This document shows positions 1,394 through 44,063 of a stretch of 44,214 nt of DNA, piece by piece. The translations under genes were made by a program, and so were the position numbers. Every line of letters begins with the position of its first letter. Positions within the stretch are counted from its first letter, which is position 1. The notes below the pieces were generated by a model. The model did no database searches and was not told where the DNA came from. It worked only from the letters and a program-made list of their open reading frames with translations. This DNA comes from Perkinsus chesapeaki (lineage: Eukaryota > Perkinsozoa > Perkinsida > Perkinsidae), in contig JAAPAO010000272.1 of assembly GCA_013115145.1 (NCBI GenBank), positions 1-44,214 on the forward strand, given 5' to 3'.

Positions 1394-3507
1394 TTAAGCA
1401 TCGCCAACCTCCTCCGCCCTCTCTCGCTTAGCGCTCCTTAAGTACGACTTCAACTTCGCCAGTGCACTCAAAAGCTCGGACTTTACACAAGCAATGCATA
1501 GACGGATATAAAGAAAAGCTACAATGCCAATAATAGCCCACGCGTACCTGAAACGATAATCAAACAGCTAGGATTACTCCATTCTATCACCATGGCCATC
1601 CTAGCGGCACCAAGGTCTCTATTATGAGATAAAAGTTAACACCAATAACTAAACATGCCAACATCCACATAATAGACGTCCAAACGTGCCCGATCGCAAA
1701 CCTAAAAGCATAATTGCTTAACACTGTTAATTGTTCTTGGAATGACGAGTAAACCCGCACAAACCTACCTCCCCATAACTTCACGACTCATTGAGAAATG
1801 CAGTACGGGAAGTAAAGCGAAAGGCAATTGGATAGACTGAAGTATATTCAACCAAGCATTCACTCCATTCATAGCTGTTATCTCGCCCTAAAGTACACAG
1901 GATAACTGGAGAAAGTAACGCATAAAAACAGGAGGCCGCACGTGCTCTTGGGAACACTAACTTACCTGAAGTATTGCAAATGCCAACGCAGGCCCGAGGG
2001 CTATAGATCTGGTAATAAGTACACGAACCCACATAGGAATCTGCCACTGCATGAACCCTTCCATAACATATTGACCCGCCAGTGTACCTATAAGACATAC
2101 AAACAATAGCCGCTTCATAATTATCAAGCCTCACCTGTGAGAGTACTAGCCTGACCAGCTGCCAACACTCCCACTGCAAAAATGTACTTAACTCCAGAAG
2201 AGTACCTTACAAGGTAATTCCCACGGACAAAATGCATTAGATGTTTCGCTGCCATAATTCAATAAGTACGAAACACGCCTCTACCTACATAACAGCGGCA
2301 AGAGCACCAGCTGCATTTTCCAGGCCGATATTAGAACAAACACCAGCCATGCCTTCGGGGGTGTGACATTGACAAGCAGGGTCGCTCGGGCTGCATACGG
2401 AGGAATCCCAATCTAAACATAAAGTGAGATAAATGGATGAAGACAAAACTCACCCTCGGGACTTGCTAGGCAGGCAAGAGGACCATTTTGAAGTGTTGCG
2501 CATTGACGGGAGAACATACCATGAGCAAAAGCAGACACCACCGCCAAGTTAATAAGGAATGATACAGATAAAGACGATGTTGAATCGATGAGGAAATATC
2601 TAAAAAAAGAGAATCTAACAGTTTCAAAAGATACCAGTGGGAAAAGAATCCTTGCGAGTGCGCACTTATTAGCTTGTTTGATGTTCCTTTCCTCGCTGCG
2701 ATCAATCTGCCTCGATCGAGTAAGAGCTGAATGTAGGTATAAGTTATGGGGCATAATGACGGCACCAATAAGGCCAACCATTTGCATTACAGCATAACTA
2801 GCAACCAAAGGGATAAAGCCCTTGAAGATATCTTCAGCTGGTGGAGCCGAGATACCCATATCGACAAAGAAGCATATCATCATGGTTAGAATTAATACAA
2901 ATATAAAAGCTTCTAAGACTCTTATACCATGAAACAAATGTAGTGTTAGAAATGTTAAAGTATCAACAGCGGTTATAAGTGTACCAGCCCATAATGGTAT
3001 ATTAAGCAACACTCTGAAGGCTATCGCTGTGCCCAGAACCTCTTGAATGTCTGAGCCTATAATAGCTATCTCGGCCATTATCCACAGAACTGTTGCTGTA
3101 CTTCTAGGATAACGAGCTCTACAATGCTCAGCAAGGTGTACACCAGTAACAGCAGCGATACGGCAAGCAAGCACTTGAAGTAATAAACCAAATATATGTG
3201 CAAGCAACAAAACCCAAAGCATTTGATAACCAGTAAAGGCACCTGCTTGCAGATCAGCTTCAAGGTTACCAGGATCTAGATAGGCTAATGACATTAGCCA
3301 TCCAGGACCAGTATATTTAAAGAATGTACGAAATGAGAACTTAACCCCTGGTGGATCGACCGGGATAACGACTGATTTCTCCTTGCCAAATACTCTTGAA
3401 GATGACGGAACAACTTCCTTTTCTTTAATAGGGCTATTCCCACTCATGGAGGACGCCTGCTCCTCAGTGTCGATAGTGAATTGATCTAAAGGTTTTTCAG
3501 TGGACAT
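1394..3507 (-). CDS. NRAMP-family divalent metal transporter (8 exons)
   Basis: Proton-coupled Fe/Mn uptake transporter of the NRAMP/DMT1 family, an integral membrane protein. The spliced model is 562 aa, normal for the family. A cytosolic N-terminus of about 70 residues precedes TM1 with [13 protein letters not shown] (the metal-binding DPGN motif). TM6 carries [12 protein letters not shown] (the MPH motif). Later exons give [34 protein letters not shown] and [17 protein letters not shown], all typical. Exons: 3507-2666, 2599-2454, 2412-2289, 2205-2135, 2087-1966, 1887-1769, 1701-1591, 1547-1394. Introns are 41 to 83 nt with GT-AG ends and the total is a multiple of three. The start is the ATG at 3507; it follows a pyrimidine tract ending in CAG two bases upstream, which may be a trans-splice acceptor. 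Function is family knowledge; the substrate is not determined. Confidence 0.95.
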
Positions 3508-4366
3508 CACTGAGGGAAACTAAATCTGCGGTGAGTTCGTCTATATGCTAAACCGAGGCAATCGGGATTCCCAGCAACGCATCATTAAATACAGCAAACA
3601 TGAAACTTGAACTATACCGTTCCATAGAGACACAGAATGTCACATTCTGAATGTGCAACGAACAGCAGCAAAGGTTGAGAGATAGAGACGCTCTTTACCA
3701 CCCTACGAAAAAGTGCGCCATTCCTCGGGTTCGTGGAGCGGAGCTGGTACGCCCACACAACGTGCAATTATGAAGTGATACTCTACTGTGAAGTCTATAA
3801 TGTCGCCATAGCATTTCGTCCGCGATTCTCAACAGGTTTGAATAGCTCTACCATGCAGTACTCCTTAACGCGGGGACTCGAACTCGAGTGGGATGCGGTA
3901 CAAGCCTTGTAAAGCGTGCAATGTACACGTGCTGCTGCATGTTAAATAATAAAGAACCCAGGGGAGGAAAGTACAGCTTCATAGAGGAGGAGTTTTGATA
4001 CGCTCTGTATTAAGCCTCTCGATGGCTCTGAGGATCTACAATCATAACTAAACAGCAACTACGAATAAGTTAGAATTCAACCATATAGGCTCCCGAAGAG
4101 AATAGGTGACGTGGCATACGGTAATGGTCCATGCTGGCAAGTGTACCCTAACTTACTTAATATGTTGTAACTTACCTATCAACGCCACATATGTGGACAT
4201 TATCATGGACATCCACATATTATTGTTCTCCATGCTATTGCTCGTGGCATTCATTCGTCCAAGCTCGGCATGGAGCCGTGACGCCAAATCTTGAGTTAGG
4301 AAAGACGCGAGATTTTGCAAGATACGCAAGATTACCCTCACTCTCATCGACACCTTTGTTGTTGTT
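3508..4366. other. Divergent intergenic region between NRAMP (-) and FTR (+)
   Basis: About 860 nt head-to-head spacer that should hold both promoters and 5' leaders. I see no conserved ORF. A short stretch at 3870-3890 resembles a tRNA T arm, but no cloverleaf can be built around it. Small open frames at 4106-4385 lack any recognisable domain. Confidence 0.5.
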
Positions 4367-5086
4367 ATGGTTCACCATCGTCTAGGAGCATTACTCCTTG
4401 GCATTACCCTCCTCCTTGTCCTCCTGAACTTCACCTATACCTTCCTTTATCCCTCTACTTTACACTCTGTTGCCCAGCAGCATCAGGCAGCAGCCTCTCG
4501 AACAAACGTCTATATCACTTCTACTGGCATCACCGCCCTCAAAGGATGTGCATTCCTCACCTCAGCGTGGTTGCTCATCACCGCTCTAGTTCGTAGATCG
4601 GCTGCACGGAGACCTTCCACAGAGGACAAGGTCAAGCAAGCAGAACGCACGATTGCAAGATTCGCCGAAAAATATGCCCGAAGGACCGGTACCAAATTTT
4701 GCCGAGATCGGAGGGTAACAGCGCGAGTCATCAGAGGGCTTGCTGAGGTAGGCTTCGGCTTTGGCGGCTCTATCAGCCCTTCTCTTCAGCACAAGGTAGA
4801 ATTAGGCGCTCCGCTGTGCCCTTGTAGAGATTATGAAGATAAAAAAGAGGAAGTAAGGAGGGCCTATTGGAACTGCCCTTGCGTGCCGATGAGGTAAAGC
4901 CAAGGGTCTCCAACTAACCTATTACGAATCTTTTCCAGAACTCAAGGCCATTGTCATTGCATGTTATTCGTTCAACCCGACAGTCCGTGGGCATCTGACG
5001 CCCCACCGAAGATCACGACCGACGATATAGAAGATTTAGGAAACTACTTTGATACCGATGTTTCATGCCTCCTTCACTTGTGTTAA
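4367..5086 (+). CDS. FTRB: Ferredoxin:thioredoxin reductase catalytic (beta) subunit
   Basis: Iron-sulfur enzyme that passes electrons from reduced ferredoxin to thioredoxin, normally in plastids. All motifs are visible: KFCRD, ELGAPLCPCRDYEDK, YWNCPCVPMR and GHCHCMLF, i.e. the CPC, CPC and CHC sets that supply the 4Fe-4S ligands and the redox-active disulfide. Exons: 4367-4747, 4790-4893, 4939-5086; product 210 aa. The first intron (4748-4789, 42 nt) is in frame and stop-free; removing it restores the family sequence GLAEHKVELGAPLC. The N-terminus has a hydrophobic segment (LGALLLGITLLLVLLNFTY) and then an extension before the conserved domain, as expected for plastid import via the ER; a second hydrophobic stretch (GCAFLTSAWLLITALV) follows at about residues 60-75. 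The GBP gene starts 29 nt after the stop. Confidence 0.93.
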
Positions 5087-9916: not shown

Positions 9917-10797
9917 TTAGCTGGACATTGCCATCACACGAGAGTACACTTCATCAACTATGCCGTTAAGAAGGAAATCCTCGAAGAAGCGAGTAACACG
10001 TGGTGACGTTAGATACGGAATTGAATCATCATCTCCCTGGAATGCTGTTGTGGAATGGGTTGTTGGTGAGAATATGTAAATAAGATAGTGGGAATCGCCA
10101 ATCTTACCTGACATATCGGCAAGAAGCGATCTGTAATACACAGCCTCACCTTTGTCGACGAATCCGGCCTTGAGGAACGCTTTCCTCGCGGCATTATTCC
10201 CCATAAGCGTTCTCGTCCAAGCTGCAATAGTGAGAGGTCGTTTATAGTGAATCTGATCGCCTTCGTCCGACACGGAGCTCCAGAGGTCCCCCTCACATAG
10301 CCAACAAGCCTATTGAGCAACTTCGGTGCTATCCTGTTCCCTCGGTATTTATCATTGACGAAGATGCTCGTGATATACGCCCACTCGCCGTGCTTCATTG
10401 TCCTCACCATACCAAACTCGGCAGATCCAACGATCTTCTGGGAAGCAGAAAGTGTTGAGATATCGTAAAGAGCATTCATCGACCGGAGTCGACTTTTAAG
10501 TTCACGTGAGTACCCTTGTGAAGTCAAGGTCCCCCGGCATGGGGCCCCGGAGGCTGCCCTAGACCCCCGTTTGGGATCCTCCCACTTGCTTACATGGCCT
10601 TCCTCAGCACTGGAGTTTATCGCTAGAAAAGTGACTTCATCATCGAGAGCCCAATCAAGGACGCCGTCAGAAGGCTCTGCTGGGCGGTATTCCAAAGCCT
10701 CGGCGAGTGGATGGAATGCGGACTGGCGGCTCGTGGCAGACTGTGTGGTGACAAGGAGTGTTGCACCGATTACGATTTTCATGCCATGACTTGGCAT
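9917..10797 (-). CDS. Secreted GNAT-family N-acetyltransferase, copy 2
   Basis: Paralogue of the gene at 8435-9256. The four-exon model 10797-10594, 10437-10297, 10252-10108, 10044-9917 totals 205 aa and closes in frame at TAA 9917. It begins MPSHGMKIVIGATLLVTTQS, a signal peptide (a second ATG at 10782 would also give one). Then come LEYRPAEPSDG, VGSAEFGMV, GEWAYITSIFV and the acetyl-CoA loop YRGNRIAPKLLNRLVGY. The last part has YKRPLTIAAWTRTL and AFLKAGFVDKGEAVYY, a clear GNAT ending. Exons 1 and 2 are identical in length to copy 1 and introns 1 and 2 sit at the same places in phase 0. Intron 1 here is 156 nt and GC-rich. Intron 3 (10045-10107, 63 nt) is stop-free. Substrate unknown. Confidence 0.87.
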
Positions 10798-11250
10798 TCT
10801 AATAGACACTGATGACTGATATCGCAGGGCTGACTATGGGAATGATGCCGAGCTCGAATTGTGGCGAGCCGCTACTTACGGAGAACTACCGTGACTGGAA
10901 TTGCCATTCTTCGAGCGAACTTCAACTGTTTGCGCAATCATAGCAAACATGCAACCGTTTGGTAACTTCCTGCTCTTTACCGTGGAGCCGCCTGACCTGT
11001 CCTACTCCACTGCGCAAACCGACATAAATGACTTCTCATTTACGGCTCGTTTCACCATTGCCGAAGGTGCATTTCCATCGCTTGGAATCACTTGTCCATC
11101 ATATAGGACACTTGTGAACTACAATTACTGTGATTACAGTGCTTCGAAACCTTGTCCCACTTTAGCTTCAGTTCATCGGGTAAGCCACAGCCGCACTGCT
11201 GTAAAGGACAGGTACGCGTGCACTCTATGCACAATTCATATATATTCGTC
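10798..11250. other. Intergenic, 5' of GNAT copy 2
   Basis: A + open frame of about 120 codons (10901-11272) runs into the tRNA-Arg gene and has no recognisable domain. I read this stretch as promoter and leader of the GNAT gene rather than coding. Confidence 0.5.
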
Positions 11251-36863: not shown

Positions 36864-37117
36864 CAACAATAATCGATCACCAGGGCGCGCGCTTTTTTCA
36901 AACCTGATCTATAAGGCCGTGCGCTGTGAACGCGTGTCACAAGTCTTTAGATGAAATCGGATGTGATGGCGATTTAACGACGTTGAACTGAGTCCTTCGG
37001 ACGATGATGTGACATGTATTAGGCTAGGGTATTATTAATCCCACTGTGATTTGAGATATACTAGCCCTTAACGACGCCATTGCATCTTTGATTTCCAGTG
37101 ACTTTGGTTCTAGAACT

Positions 37118-38119
37118 ATGAAAGGTGGCAGCTTTGGCAAGGGTAAAGGCAAGGGCAAGGGCTCTGGTAAAGGCAAGGGCTTCAGCGGCAAAGGCGGCAA
37201 GGGAAAGGGTAAAGGAAAAGGAGGAAAAGGAAAGGGAGGAAAAGGAAAGGGAGGACCTAAGGGAGCCAACAAGGTCATCGTAGAGCCTCATCGTTTCGAA
37301 GGCTGCTTCGTGTCCCGAGGCAAAGATGAGGCCCTTCTTACCCGTAACATGGTCCCTGGTGAGAGTGTCTATGGTGAGAAGCGTATCACTGTTGAGAAGC
37401 CAGTAGAAGGTCAAGATCAACCTGAGAAGATTGAATACCGTGTCTGGAACCCATTCCGTTCCAAGCTTGGTGCTACCATTGTTGGTGGTGTTGCTAATAT
37501 GCCTATTAAACCTGGTAGCAAGGTTCTCTATTTGGGTGCTGCTTCTGGTACTACTGTATCACACGTCAGTGATATGGTTGGCCCCACTGGCTGTGTCTAT
37601 GCCGTTGAATTTGCTCATCGTCCTGGTCGTGATTTAACCAACATGGCCAAGAAGCGTCCCAATATTGTAAGGCAGTGTATTCTTTATATAACAACATGTC
37701 TCTTCTTCTCAGGTGCCTATCATCGAGGATGCTCGTCAGCCTCTTCGCTATAGAATGTTGGTGCCTATGGTTGATGTGATCTTCGCTGATGTTGCCCAGC
37801 CCGATCAAGCTCGTATTGTAGCTGTTAACGCTCAGAACTTCCTCAAGAACCACGGATGGTACATTATATCCATCAAGGCTAACTGTGTTGATTCCACTGC
37901 CGCTCCAGAGGCTGTTTTCGCCAGTGAGATTGAGAAGCTTAAGAAGGATAAACTGAAGTAAGTGTGCCGTTGTTGTTGTTGTTGTTGTTAAAGATGTTGA
38001 TGATTGCCTCCTTGTTTATTATTAGGCCTAAGGAACAGCTTACTTTGGAGCCTTATCATAGAGATCATGCTGTTGTTATTGGCCAATACCAACCATTGAA
38101 GCATAAGAAGGCTGAGTAG
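37118..38119 (+). CDS. FBL: Fibrillarin (box C/D snoRNP 2'-O-methyltransferase) with Gly-Lys domain
   Basis: Nucleolar methyltransferase that modifies rRNA guided by C/D snoRNAs. Exons 37118-37666, 37713-37957, 38026-38119 give 295 aa. The SAM-binding fold shows [34 protein letters not shown] and [12 protein letters not shown]; the C-terminus has [20 protein letters not shown]. The first about 50 residues are built from GK and GGK units (e.g. [16 protein letters not shown]) where most eukaryotes have Gly-Arg repeats. The start is ATG 37118; a pyrimidine-rich CCAG lies 20 nt upstream and could be a trans-splice acceptor. Intron 2 contains a (GTT)n microsatellite near 37968-37989. Codon use is biased to a few codons (GGT, GTT, AAG), as in highly expressed genes. 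Confidence 0.95.
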
Positions 38120-42526: not shown

Positions 42527-43612
42527 CTACTTCAAATATTCAGCAATAGTAATAGTTCGTGAGTCTAGATCGAAAGACGAGAAGAACGTTGTGAAGAAAG
42601 AGCTACCGAGAGTGGCTTGTGAGCCATCGCAAAACCGAAGAGCAAGTTCACACAATGTACCATTACATCCATTGATATATTTCTCGGGGGGAATGCTTAT
42701 AACAAAAGGACGCTGCTGATCTCCGACATTGAACGTGAGTGTCGGGAAGTATCTTTGCCCTTTGTCTGTGATATACCAAACTCCATTCGTGGACTCGAGG
42801 TGCACCCCGGGCCCAGCGAAAGATAAGATCTTAATAAGAAGGCCTTGAAATATATACCTCGGGATAACAAAAGGAGTTGACCCAGAGTCGAAGATAACAC
42901 CGCCATTTTCTGCTTGCCGCACGAATGTTTCCCCGGTAGAGCTGACTAGACCATAAGAGAAGAGATTCGATTCGAAGTGACTATCCTCACGGGGTTCTGT
43001 CATCGGAATTGTAGTAACAGGCCCCTCGAAAACACACAACCAAAACCATAAACCGAATATTATATATCCGGTAAATGAACTCACATCACCATCGCAACAT
43101 ATCGATACTGCGTACTTGCTGATTATATTATTCTTGTAAAGGTGGCGCGTCAATGTGTCAGGATTAGCGTAATCATCGAAAGCAAGACCAAGAAGATTCA
43201 CCGGCCTCCAGTTTGGCAATAGTGGGCTAGGAGCGTAACCTATAATTAAACGGATCTTCATGTTCAGCTGGTATTCCCCGACTACGACGGTGCTTTCATG
43301 CAAGACAGTGATAAGCTTCCCACCATTAGCGAGTGTGACGATGTATGTATCTTCAGCATAAGGATTACATTTGCCAGGGCAAGAATAGCAGCCTGTTTGT
43401 AAATGCTCGCAGGCACACTGACCGTAGGTTTTCTTATACCAGTCTTTATAAACGAGATAAATGCCACTGAGCCTTGTATCGATATGCATTTTCAAAGGCT
43501 GTCCATCGAACGACACTCCAGTAGCAATACCGTCTTCGAAAGGTAAAAGCACCTTGCTGCATGCCAAAGGATACCAACCACCTAGGACGATCAAGATAGT
43601 CGATGGTTGCAT
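42527..43612 (-). CDS. Pepsin-like aspartic protease paralogue with altered first catalytic motif
   Basis: A single uninterrupted frame of 361 codons, unlike its intron-rich neighbours. It begins MQPSTILIVLGGWYPLACS, a signal peptide, then LLPFEDGIATGVSFDGQPL. The first active-site motif reads KMHIDTRLSGIYLVY: the Gly of DTG is Arg (codon AGG at 43472-43474). The second motif, GGVIFDSGSTPFVIP, is intact. A Cys-rich insert (CACEHLQTGCYSCPGKC) follows the first motif, probably disulfide-bonded. Family marks downstream are GYIIFG, EGPVTTIPM and TLGSSFFTTFFSSFDLDSRT. The neighbour at 44064 has a normal DTG, so the change is specific to this copy. It may be inactive or of changed function. A + strand gene starts divergently 451 nt away. 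Confidence 0.9.
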   Translation of the reverse strand: MQPSTILIVLGGWYPLACSKVLLPFEDGIATGVSFDGQPLKMHIDTRLSGIYLVYKDWYKKTYGQCACEHLQTGCYSCPGKCNPYAEDTYIVTLANGGKLITVLHESTVVVGEYQLNMKIRLIIGYAPSPLLPNWRPVNLLGLAFDDYANPDTLTRHLYKNNIISKYAVSICCDGDVSSFTGYIIFGLWFWLCVFEGPVTTIPMTEPREDSHFESNLFSYGLVSSTGETFVRQAENGGVIFDSGSTPFVIPRYIFQGLLIKILSFAGPGVHLESTNGVWYITDKGQRYFPTLTFNVGDQQRPFVISIPPEKYINGCNGTLCELALRFCDGSQATLGSSFFTTFFSSFDLDSRTITIAEYLK

Positions 43613-44063
43613 GACAACTTGAACACTAACTACTTTAACCAACTCTCTGTAACGCAATTCACGACCTCAAAGAGACTTTATATCCTTCGGGTCATTTGAA
43701 AAGTGACTATAAACCGAAACTGTCTGTCCGCCAGTTAGAAATAACTGACGAGCACGCATGCGCAAGGGGAAGGCACGCATTGGATGGAGCGGCGGGGCGT
43801 AGTTCATGACGCTCCACCAACGAAACCATTAGAATGCTGTGCTTTACGGACGTATGACAGCGCAGAAGCTTACTCTACGTAAGCTTATGTAGATCAGATC
43901 AGATCACTCATAGACTCACATTGATTGCAAGCTGAATGACAGCATATCCAAAGCTTAGCACTACATTTAAAGAACGTGTGCATGCGTGCTGGGGAGCTGT
44001 TAAAATACTTGATACACTTCGCAGCGTTGTGTGCGCAACGGTGAGCTTCATAGTTCGAACAAA
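43613..44063. other. Bidirectional promoter region between two aspartic protease genes
   Basis: 451 nt between the divergent starts. No ORF is supported. The motif GTAAGCTTATG/CAGAAGCTTACTC around 43865-43890 contains two AAGCTTA-type blocks in inverted order, and AGATCAGATCAGATCA (43894-43909) is a short tandem repeat. These could be regulatory but nothing proves it. Confidence 0.45.

What the first reader, a model, noticed from the sequence alone, without database searches (positions are those of the whole stretch)
4367..5086. Complete catalytic subunit of ferredoxin:thioredoxin reductase in a presumed non-photosynthetic protist
The spliced protein keeps all three cysteine sets (CPC, CPC, CHC) and sits behind a hydrophobic N-terminal leader. 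FTR is a plastid enzyme that couples ferredoxin to thioredoxin. If the host is a heterotroph such as Perkinsus, this points to thioredoxin-based redox control in a relict plastid, fed by ferredoxin reduced by FNR rather than by light. Plastid-type RibBA lies in the same window.
Basis: partly seen in the sequence, partly recalled or inferred. Interest (0 to 1): 0.75.

Follow-up and report, generated by a model that had tools for sequence, protein, structure and literature searches.

The report
Ferredoxin:thioredoxin reductase in clam parasite
A non-photosynthetic clam parasite carries an intact gene for a chloroplast enzyme that normally passes light-driven electrons to thioredoxin, suggesting that its leftover plastid still uses this redox switch in the dark; the idea has a precedent in a colourless Euglena, and the partner proteins are only partly found.

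Summary
Window 4367-5086 (+) encodes the catalytic subunit of ferredoxin:thioredoxin reductase (FTRc): Pfam PF02943, 116 bits against a cut-off of 22, motif cysteines in exact spacing. The leader has two hydrophobic segments, shared with the P. olseni orthologue. The host is almost certainly Perkinsus chesapeaki: three exons of an FNR gene in the same assembly are identical to that species' Fnr1p. No chlorophyll-binding match. FNR and SUF genes are present. Plant-type ferredoxin, the variable FTR subunit and a thioredoxin with a plastid-like leader were not found, but a Pfam search also missed FNR, so these absences are weak. Best reading: FTRc works in the relict plastid, NADPH > FNR > ferredoxin > FTR > thioredoxin. 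Precedent: Euglena longa (PMC7580956). Searches of the held library turned up no passage reporting FTR in Perkinsus; UniRef already names the P. olseni protein. A new member of a known kind, and a useful lead on relict-plastid redox control.

The parts
4367..4747 (+). FTRc exon 1: two hydrophobic leader segments (aa 6-22, 55-71), basic stretch, start of the catalytic domain
   Evidence: aligned with P0001
   Evidence: its 14 residues are absent from the P. olseni protein; keeping it breaks the Cys spacing found in 121 of 121
4790..4893 (+). FTRc exon 2: first CPC and second CPC
4894..4938 (+). intron B, 45 nt, GT..AG; predicted
4939..5086 (+). FTRc exon 3: CHC and C-terminus, stop TAA
   Evidence: the last about 15 residues differ from or have no counterpart in P. 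olseni

Best explanation
The gene encodes a working catalytic subunit of plastid ferredoxin:thioredoxin reductase in Perkinsus chesapeaki. The protein enters the secretory route by its N-terminal hydrophobic signal, is carried to the relict plastid by the rest of the leader, and there holds a 4Fe-4S cluster beside a redox disulfide. NADPH reduces a plant-type ferredoxin through FNR run in reverse; ferredoxin gives one electron at a time to FTR; FTR reduces a thioredoxin, which keeps plastid enzymes or peroxiredoxins reduced without light. Shown: gene, motif, predicted fold (on the P. olseni orthologue), host, FNR gene, SUF-family matches, no LHC match. Inferred: plastid location, reverse flow, ferredoxin and thioredoxin partners, presence of a variable subunit, expression, activity.
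For: FTRc intact with exact Cys spacing; of 40 columns that are at least 95% conserved in the other 119 sequences, the window departs at 2, one of them (Glu to Thr at 163) shared with P. olseni. AlphaFold2 model of the P. olseni orthologue with a 64-row alignment matches solved FTRc chains (top 10 of 42 Foldseek matches are FTR, TMt 0.83-0.87, rmsd 1.9-2.0 A). Two-segment leader conserved in P. olseni (model helices 8-27 and 66-84). FNR gene: 7 of 15 matches at E<=1 lie on C727; best PDB match leaf FNR E 2.1e-61; P. marinus FNR 70% identical to the partial protein. PF01458 (SufB/D) 4 matches on two contigs, 3 over the cut-off. Euglena longa keeps Fd, FNR, FTR and Trx in a colourless plastid (PMC7580956, section 11 read). 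Reverse FNR flow to Fd, with FTR among the users, is proposed for non-photosynthetic green algae (PMC7495860, passages).
Against: No variable-subunit match; no plant-type ferredoxin by Fer2 (the 2 matches look like xanthine dehydrogenase) or by two Cys-motif patterns (4 hits against 1 for the reversed control; 13 against 22; none reads as a ferredoxin). None of the thioredoxin loci that I looked at by eye (16 of 21 matches) shows a clear signal-plus-transit leader. No hit named P. marinus or P. chesapeaki is among the 120 listed of 953 FTRc hits. HCF101 of the plastid type, which in Arabidopsis delivers 4Fe-4S clusters to FTR, is reported absent from P. marinus (PMC7980591, passages). The FNR proteins of P. 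marinus and P. chesapeaki do not show the two-segment leader. Targeting rests on hydropathy alone. The structure model is least sure within the domain (blocks of pLDDT 51-64) at residues 161-180, which hold the second CPC and the CHC.
Confidence: 0.66

Rival explanations
1. FTRc has lost its variable subunit and works alone in the relict plastid, as a ferredoxin-dependent disulfide reductase for a narrow set of targets.
For: PF02941 gives 0 matches and 0 first-look candidates (control rings in Synechococcus), while PF02943 gives one clear match. Distant FTRc-like enzymes with solved structures exist outside plastids (4tpu, 7pwe).
Against: The variable subunit is a small domain (67 profile positions); the FNR gene was missed by a Pfam search and found only with a family-specific model at E<=1, so the absence is weak. 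The window departs at only 2 of 40 highly conserved FTRc columns, no sign of a relaxed surface, though the interface residues were not examined.
Confidence: 0.17
2. The protein works outside the plastid, for example held in the secretory system by its two hydrophobic segments, reducing other substrates.
For: The leader has two hydrophobic helices and no targeting program was available; no thioredoxin with a plastid-like leader was seen among those inspected.
Against: Signal plus second hydrophobic segment is the form of plastid leaders in three-membrane plastids of dinoflagellates (recalled, not from a call). That FTR works with plastid or bacterial ferredoxins is likewise recalled.
Confidence: 0.1
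3. The gene is a relic on its way out, no longer functional.
For: No hit named P. marinus or P. chesapeaki among the 120 listed; partners incompletely found.
Against: Open frame, splice sites, all seven motif cysteines kept in two species whose catalytic domains are identical at 72 of 82 positions. dN/dS was not computed.
Confidence: 0.05
4. Origin variant, not exclusive of the others: FTRc came by lateral transfer from a cyanobacterium rather than by inheritance from the plastid; function as in the best explanation.
For: In the free 34-row tree the Perkinsus pair sits with two rows (P0011, P0002; 94/99, a fork not starred), P0011 being Chondrocystis by its record name; P0008, in the same 9-row subgroup of the first tree, has its five nearest relatives in genome contigs in Pleurocapsales-type cyanobacteria (80-83%).
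Against: Very long branch (1.17 and 1.01 changes per column), 106-108 columns; AU tests do not reject a joint clade with red-lineage rows (p 0.335), green rows (0.137) or all plastid rows (0.349). No row is known to be a dinoflagellate or chromerid.
Confidence: 0.2

Closest known systems
Plastid and cyanobacterial ferredoxin:thioredoxin reductase, catalytic subunit (PF02943; 1dj7, 2pu9, 7c3f)
   Same: Catalytic domain, seven cysteines, exact spacing, predicted fold
   Different: Two-segment hydrophobic leader; long branch; Glu at residue 163, kept in 118 of 119 others, is Thr in both Perkinsus species; no variable subunit found
Fd/FNR/FTR/Trx system of the colourless plastid of Euglena longa (PMC7580956)
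   Same: FTR and FNR kept after loss of photosynthesis
   Different: In E. longa, FTR and Trx have clear plastid leaders and Calvin-Benson enzymes are the proposed targets; in Perkinsus the targets are unknown and Fd/Trx were not found here
Apicoplast Fd/FNR system (passages in PMC4010437)
   Same: Relict plastid of a related lineage with Fd and FNR
   Different: The passages call Fd/FNR the only known redox system of the apicoplast; 'thioredoxin' and 'FTR' occur 0 times in that paper's text
Ferredoxin-dependent disulfide reductases of archaea and bacteria (4tpu, 7pwe)
   Same: Distant relatives of the catalytic subunit (E about 4e-4)
   Different: Perkinsus FTRc is much closer to the plastid/cyanobacterial form (E about 1e-36 to 5e-38)

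Membership tests
FTR catalytic subunit | PF02943 domain above the curated cut-off | tested here: met
   116 bits against 22. Among NCBIfam models only FtrB_double_U matches well, 41.7 bits, under its cut-off of 160
FTR catalytic subunit | CPC, CPC, CHC with cluster and redox cysteines in conserved spacing | tested here: met
   strict pattern 121 of 121; which cysteines bind the cluster is recalled
FTR catalytic subunit | FTRc fold | tested here: met
   modelled on the P. olseni orthologue, not on the window protein: mean pLDDT 75.5, blocks 85-95 in most of the domain but 51-64 at 161-180, where the second CPC and the CHC lie; Foldseek top 10 are FTR. The single-sequence model was poor (46.6)
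Plastid FTR heterodimer | variable subunit (PF02941) in the genome | tested here: inconclusive
   0 candidates; the method misses short-exon genes (versus 53)
Plastid Fd/Trx system | plant-type ferredoxin | tested here: inconclusive
   negative; reported for P. marinus (PMC2868825, passages)
Plastid Fd/Trx system | plant-type FNR | tested here: met
   C727, about 52606-49146, minus strand
Plastid Fd/Trx system | thioredoxin with plastid leader | tested here: inconclusive
   21 matches, 16 loci looked at by eye, part of that output being cut, none clear; 5 not looked at
Plastid-targeted protein | signal and transit peptide | tested here: inconclusive
   two hydrophobic segments by Kyte-Doolittle in two species; no targeting program
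Plastid FTR | 4Fe-4S cluster and Fd-dependent thioredoxin reduction | not testable with these tools
   needs protein
Relict plastid of a heterotroph | host lacks light harvesting | tested here: met
   PF00504 0 of 1 genome, control rings in Synechococcus only; one family only: photosystem and Rubisco genes not searched

The most novel reading that the evidence does not exclude
A relict plastid without light harvesting keeps FTRc as a dark, NADPH-powered thioredoxin switch for non-Calvin targets (isoprenoid synthesis, peroxiredoxins, Fe-S supply), possibly with FTRc acting without its variable subunit.
Probability: 0.25. Interest if true: 0.7.

Novelty: new member of a known kind. Interest (0 to 1): 0.5.

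Why it matters
Why relict plastids are kept, and how they are controlled without light, is an open question. FTR is best known as the enzyme that tells plastid metabolism that it is light (recalled). Its retention in a parasite of bivalves, beside FNR but with no chlorophyll-binding protein match, gives a concrete, testable case of dark ferredoxin-thioredoxin control in the alveolates, the group that holds the apicoplast. Animals are not known to have FTR (recalled), so it may also mark an enzyme that the parasite has and its host lacks.

Tried and rejected
Rejected: the two Fer2 matches on C112 as ferredoxins (CGEGGCGAC motif, of xanthine dehydrogenase type by recall). Rejected: L010 (C239) as FNR; its best PDB matches are P450 reductases, with FNR and sulfite reductase entries further down, NCBIfam gives sulfite reductase first and FNR at 33-36 bits, and the extended locus has pieces that look like a CPR/SiR-type FAD domain by eye. 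Rejected: ferredoxin motif hits; the 4 hits lie in repeat-like frames; of the 13 hits (those 4 included), one (L048) looks like succinate dehydrogenase by recall and the rest give no ferredoxin frame. L049 looked tempting by its nine residues but has stops and no ferredoxin flank.

Led nowhere: Rfam SSU search for the species failed five times (the counter suggests that one of these was charged); PMC6810647 not held; single-sequence fold; phylogenetic origin unresolved; the first motif script had a wrong spacing and stopped with an error (redone). The Cpn60/TCP1 search (45 matches on 10 contigs) suggests that the assembly is not grossly incomplete; it is a rough gauge. Paper listings seen but not read beyond the passages named; PMC11838916 was looked up and its one FTR passage concerns Arabidopsis.

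Full report
What is there. The window is contig C193 of a 35.4-Mb, 884-contig assembly. At 4367-5086 on the plus strand lies a three-exon gene: exons 4367-4747, 4790-4893 and 4939-5086, introns of 42 and 45 nt with GT..AG borders (predicted, no transcript seen). Removing it gives GLAE-HKVELGAPLCPC, the form of the relatives; the P. olseni orthologue lacks the 14 residues, and the strict cysteine spacing C-x24-CPC-x16-CPC-x8-CHC, met by 121 of 121 sequences examined (the 120 listed of 953 hits plus the window), fails if the intron is kept. The 210-aa protein scores 116 bits with PF02943, matches six solved plastid/cyanobacterial FTRc sequences at E 4.6e-38 to 1.2e-36, and is the only such gene in the assembly. 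The P. olseni protein is 82% identical over half of the query, 61% over the whole, and 72 of 82 positions in the core domain.

Leader. Kyte-Doolittle hydropathy shows two hydrophobic segments, residues 6-22 and 55-71, followed by a basic stretch and then the catalytic domain; P. olseni has the same at 8-24 and 59-75. The AlphaFold2 model of the P. olseni protein, built on 64 rows, has helices there (8-27, 66-84) and a catalytic domain whose top ten Foldseek matches are FTR structures; its weakest part within the domain (pLDDT 51-64, residues 161-180) holds the second CPC and the CHC. A signal peptide plus a second hydrophobic segment resembles leaders of three-membrane plastids in dinoflagellates; that comparison is recalled, not computed. 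No targeting program was available. The annotated FNR proteins of P. marinus and P. chesapeaki begin with a much shorter hydrophobic stretch and do not show this two-segment form, so a shared leader of FTRc and FNR is not demonstrated.

Host. NRAMP, the neighbouring gene, has P. olseni as its nearest named relative at 72%, so the window is Perkinsus-like but not P. olseni. A plant-type FNR gene on C727 of the same assembly has exons identical to Fnr1p of Perkinsus chesapeaki (33 of 33, 30 of 30 and 37 of 37 residues in three stretches; other stretches 65-96%, lowered by alignment across exon borders). In the protein search Fnr1p is only 61% identical over 82% of my partial query, because its gene model carries stretches that in this DNA lie outside the FNR exons and match there. 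P. marinus FNR is 70% identical. The host is therefore almost certainly P. chesapeaki, a parasite of clams (hosts recalled). Non-photosynthetic life is recalled for the genus and read for P. marinus (PMC5573998, passages). The chlorophyll-binding family PF00504 gives no match (0 of 1 genome; control rings only in Synechococcus). Photosystem and Rubisco genes were not searched. The FTRc gene of P. chesapeaki seems not to be annotated: no hit named P. chesapeaki or P. marinus is among the 120 listed (only about a quarter of the proteins bear names, and only proteins of 0.55-1.75 times the query length are candidates).

Partners. FNR: found (15 matches at E<=1, 7 of them on C727; PDB leaf FNR at 2.1e-61). 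The earlier PF00175 search had missed it (9 matches). Fe-S supply: 4 SUFBD matches on C580 and C479, 3 over the cut-off; against this, the plastid-type HCF101 that matures FTR in Arabidopsis is reported absent from P. marinus (PMC7980591, passages). Ferredoxin: not found. The two Fer2 matches are of xanthine-dehydrogenase type; two codon patterns built on the recalled C-R-x-G-x-C-x2-C motif gave 4 and 13 hits (reversed controls 1 and 22), none of which I can read as a ferredoxin. Variable FTR subunit: no candidate. Thioredoxins: 21 matches; I looked at 16 loci by eye and saw what look like cytosolic, mitochondrial, ER and one membrane-anchored form (L016), but no clear signal-plus-transit leader (whose output was cut in the middle; L025 repeated); five loci (L013, L014, L017, L018, L028) were not looked at. 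Because a real FNR gene escaped the standard search, the three absences are weak evidence. Ferredoxin and FNR of P. marinus are in print (Stelter 2007, seen only as cited in PMC2868825, passages).

Origin. With 106-108 columns and a Perkinsus branch of 1.17 or 1.01 changes per column, the tree cannot place FTRc. The free 34-row tree puts it beside P0011 and P0002 (94/99, not starred), of a 9-row subgroup whose member P0008 has its five nearest relatives among bacterial genomes in Pleurocapsales-type cyanobacteria (80-83%), but joint clades with red-lineage rows (AU p 0.335), green rows (0.137) or all plastid rows (0.349) are not rejected. The 34 rows were chosen by me from 121; the labels red and green rest on a few named rows and on the first tree. 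Lateral transfer and long-branch artefact both remain open.

How it most likely works. NADPH reduces ferredoxin through FNR run backwards, ferredoxin feeds FTR, FTR reduces a plastid thioredoxin. This is close to the scheme proposed for Euglena longa, where Fd, FNR, FTR and Trx are reported in the plastid together with Calvin-Benson targets (PMC7580956, section 11 read), and to that mentioned for non-photosynthetic green algae (PMC7495860, passages). In Perkinsus the targets must be sought; isoprenoid enzymes and peroxiredoxins are my guesses.

Known or new. In the held library, Perkinsus with 'thioredoxin reductase' and 'ferredoxin' gives 6 papers. Passages of all six were read; none of these passages reports FTR in Perkinsus. 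Perkinsus with 'ferredoxin-thioredoxin reductase' gives one paper, where the term concerns Arabidopsis; Perkinsus with whole-word FTR and plastid gives only the E. longa paper. Most subscription papers, including a review of the Perkinsus plastid (PMC6810647), are not held, and supplements were not searched. A UniRef name shown already calls the P. olseni protein 'ferredoxin:thioredoxin reductase', so the gene itself is not unseen. I class it as a new member of a known kind, with moderate interest because it gives a concrete handle on dark redox control in an alveolate relict plastid.

Noticed in passing
window 16109-15312, minus strand: RibBA: stretches matching DHBP synthase (39.6 bits) and GTP cyclohydrolase II (28.7 and 30.8 bits) in order on one strand, with introns between; a fourth stretch (16921-16718) gave no match. 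Plastid origin not tested.
   Followed up: partly
window 37055-37753, plus strand: Fibrillarin (PF01269, 178.7 bits) whose N-terminal tail is rich in Gly-Lys repeats (GKGKGKG...) rather than the usual Gly-Arg repeats (the latter recalled).
   Followed up: no
window 2413-3510, minus strand: NRAMP metal transporter (PF01566, 228 bits); nearest hit is an unnamed metagenome protein at 88%, P. olseni 72%.
   Followed up: partly
window 42530-43666, minus strand: Aspartyl protease-like frame (PF00026, 36.7 bits).
   Followed up: no
window 10012-10833, minus strand: GNAT acetyltransferase-like frame (PF00583, 28.8 bits).
   Followed up: no
C145:10522-23873, C664, C61, C315 of the assembly: Six very long open frames (1438-1896 aa) with CPR-type NAD-binding domains, three on C145 within about 13 kb; they may be pyruvate:NADP oxidoreductase fusions (recalled, not tested).
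   Followed up: no
L016 (C441:8625-8945, minus strand): A thioredoxin domain with a WCGPC site and, upstream, a frame with one hydrophobic segment; possible candidate partner, location unknown.
   Followed up: no
P0242 (Perkinsus chesapeaki Fnr1p, public record): The public FNR gene model seems to carry intron-derived stretches and to lack the last exon: it ends in VCKVTKD, while C727 has a further exon ending in HAEVY like P. marinus.
   Followed up: partly
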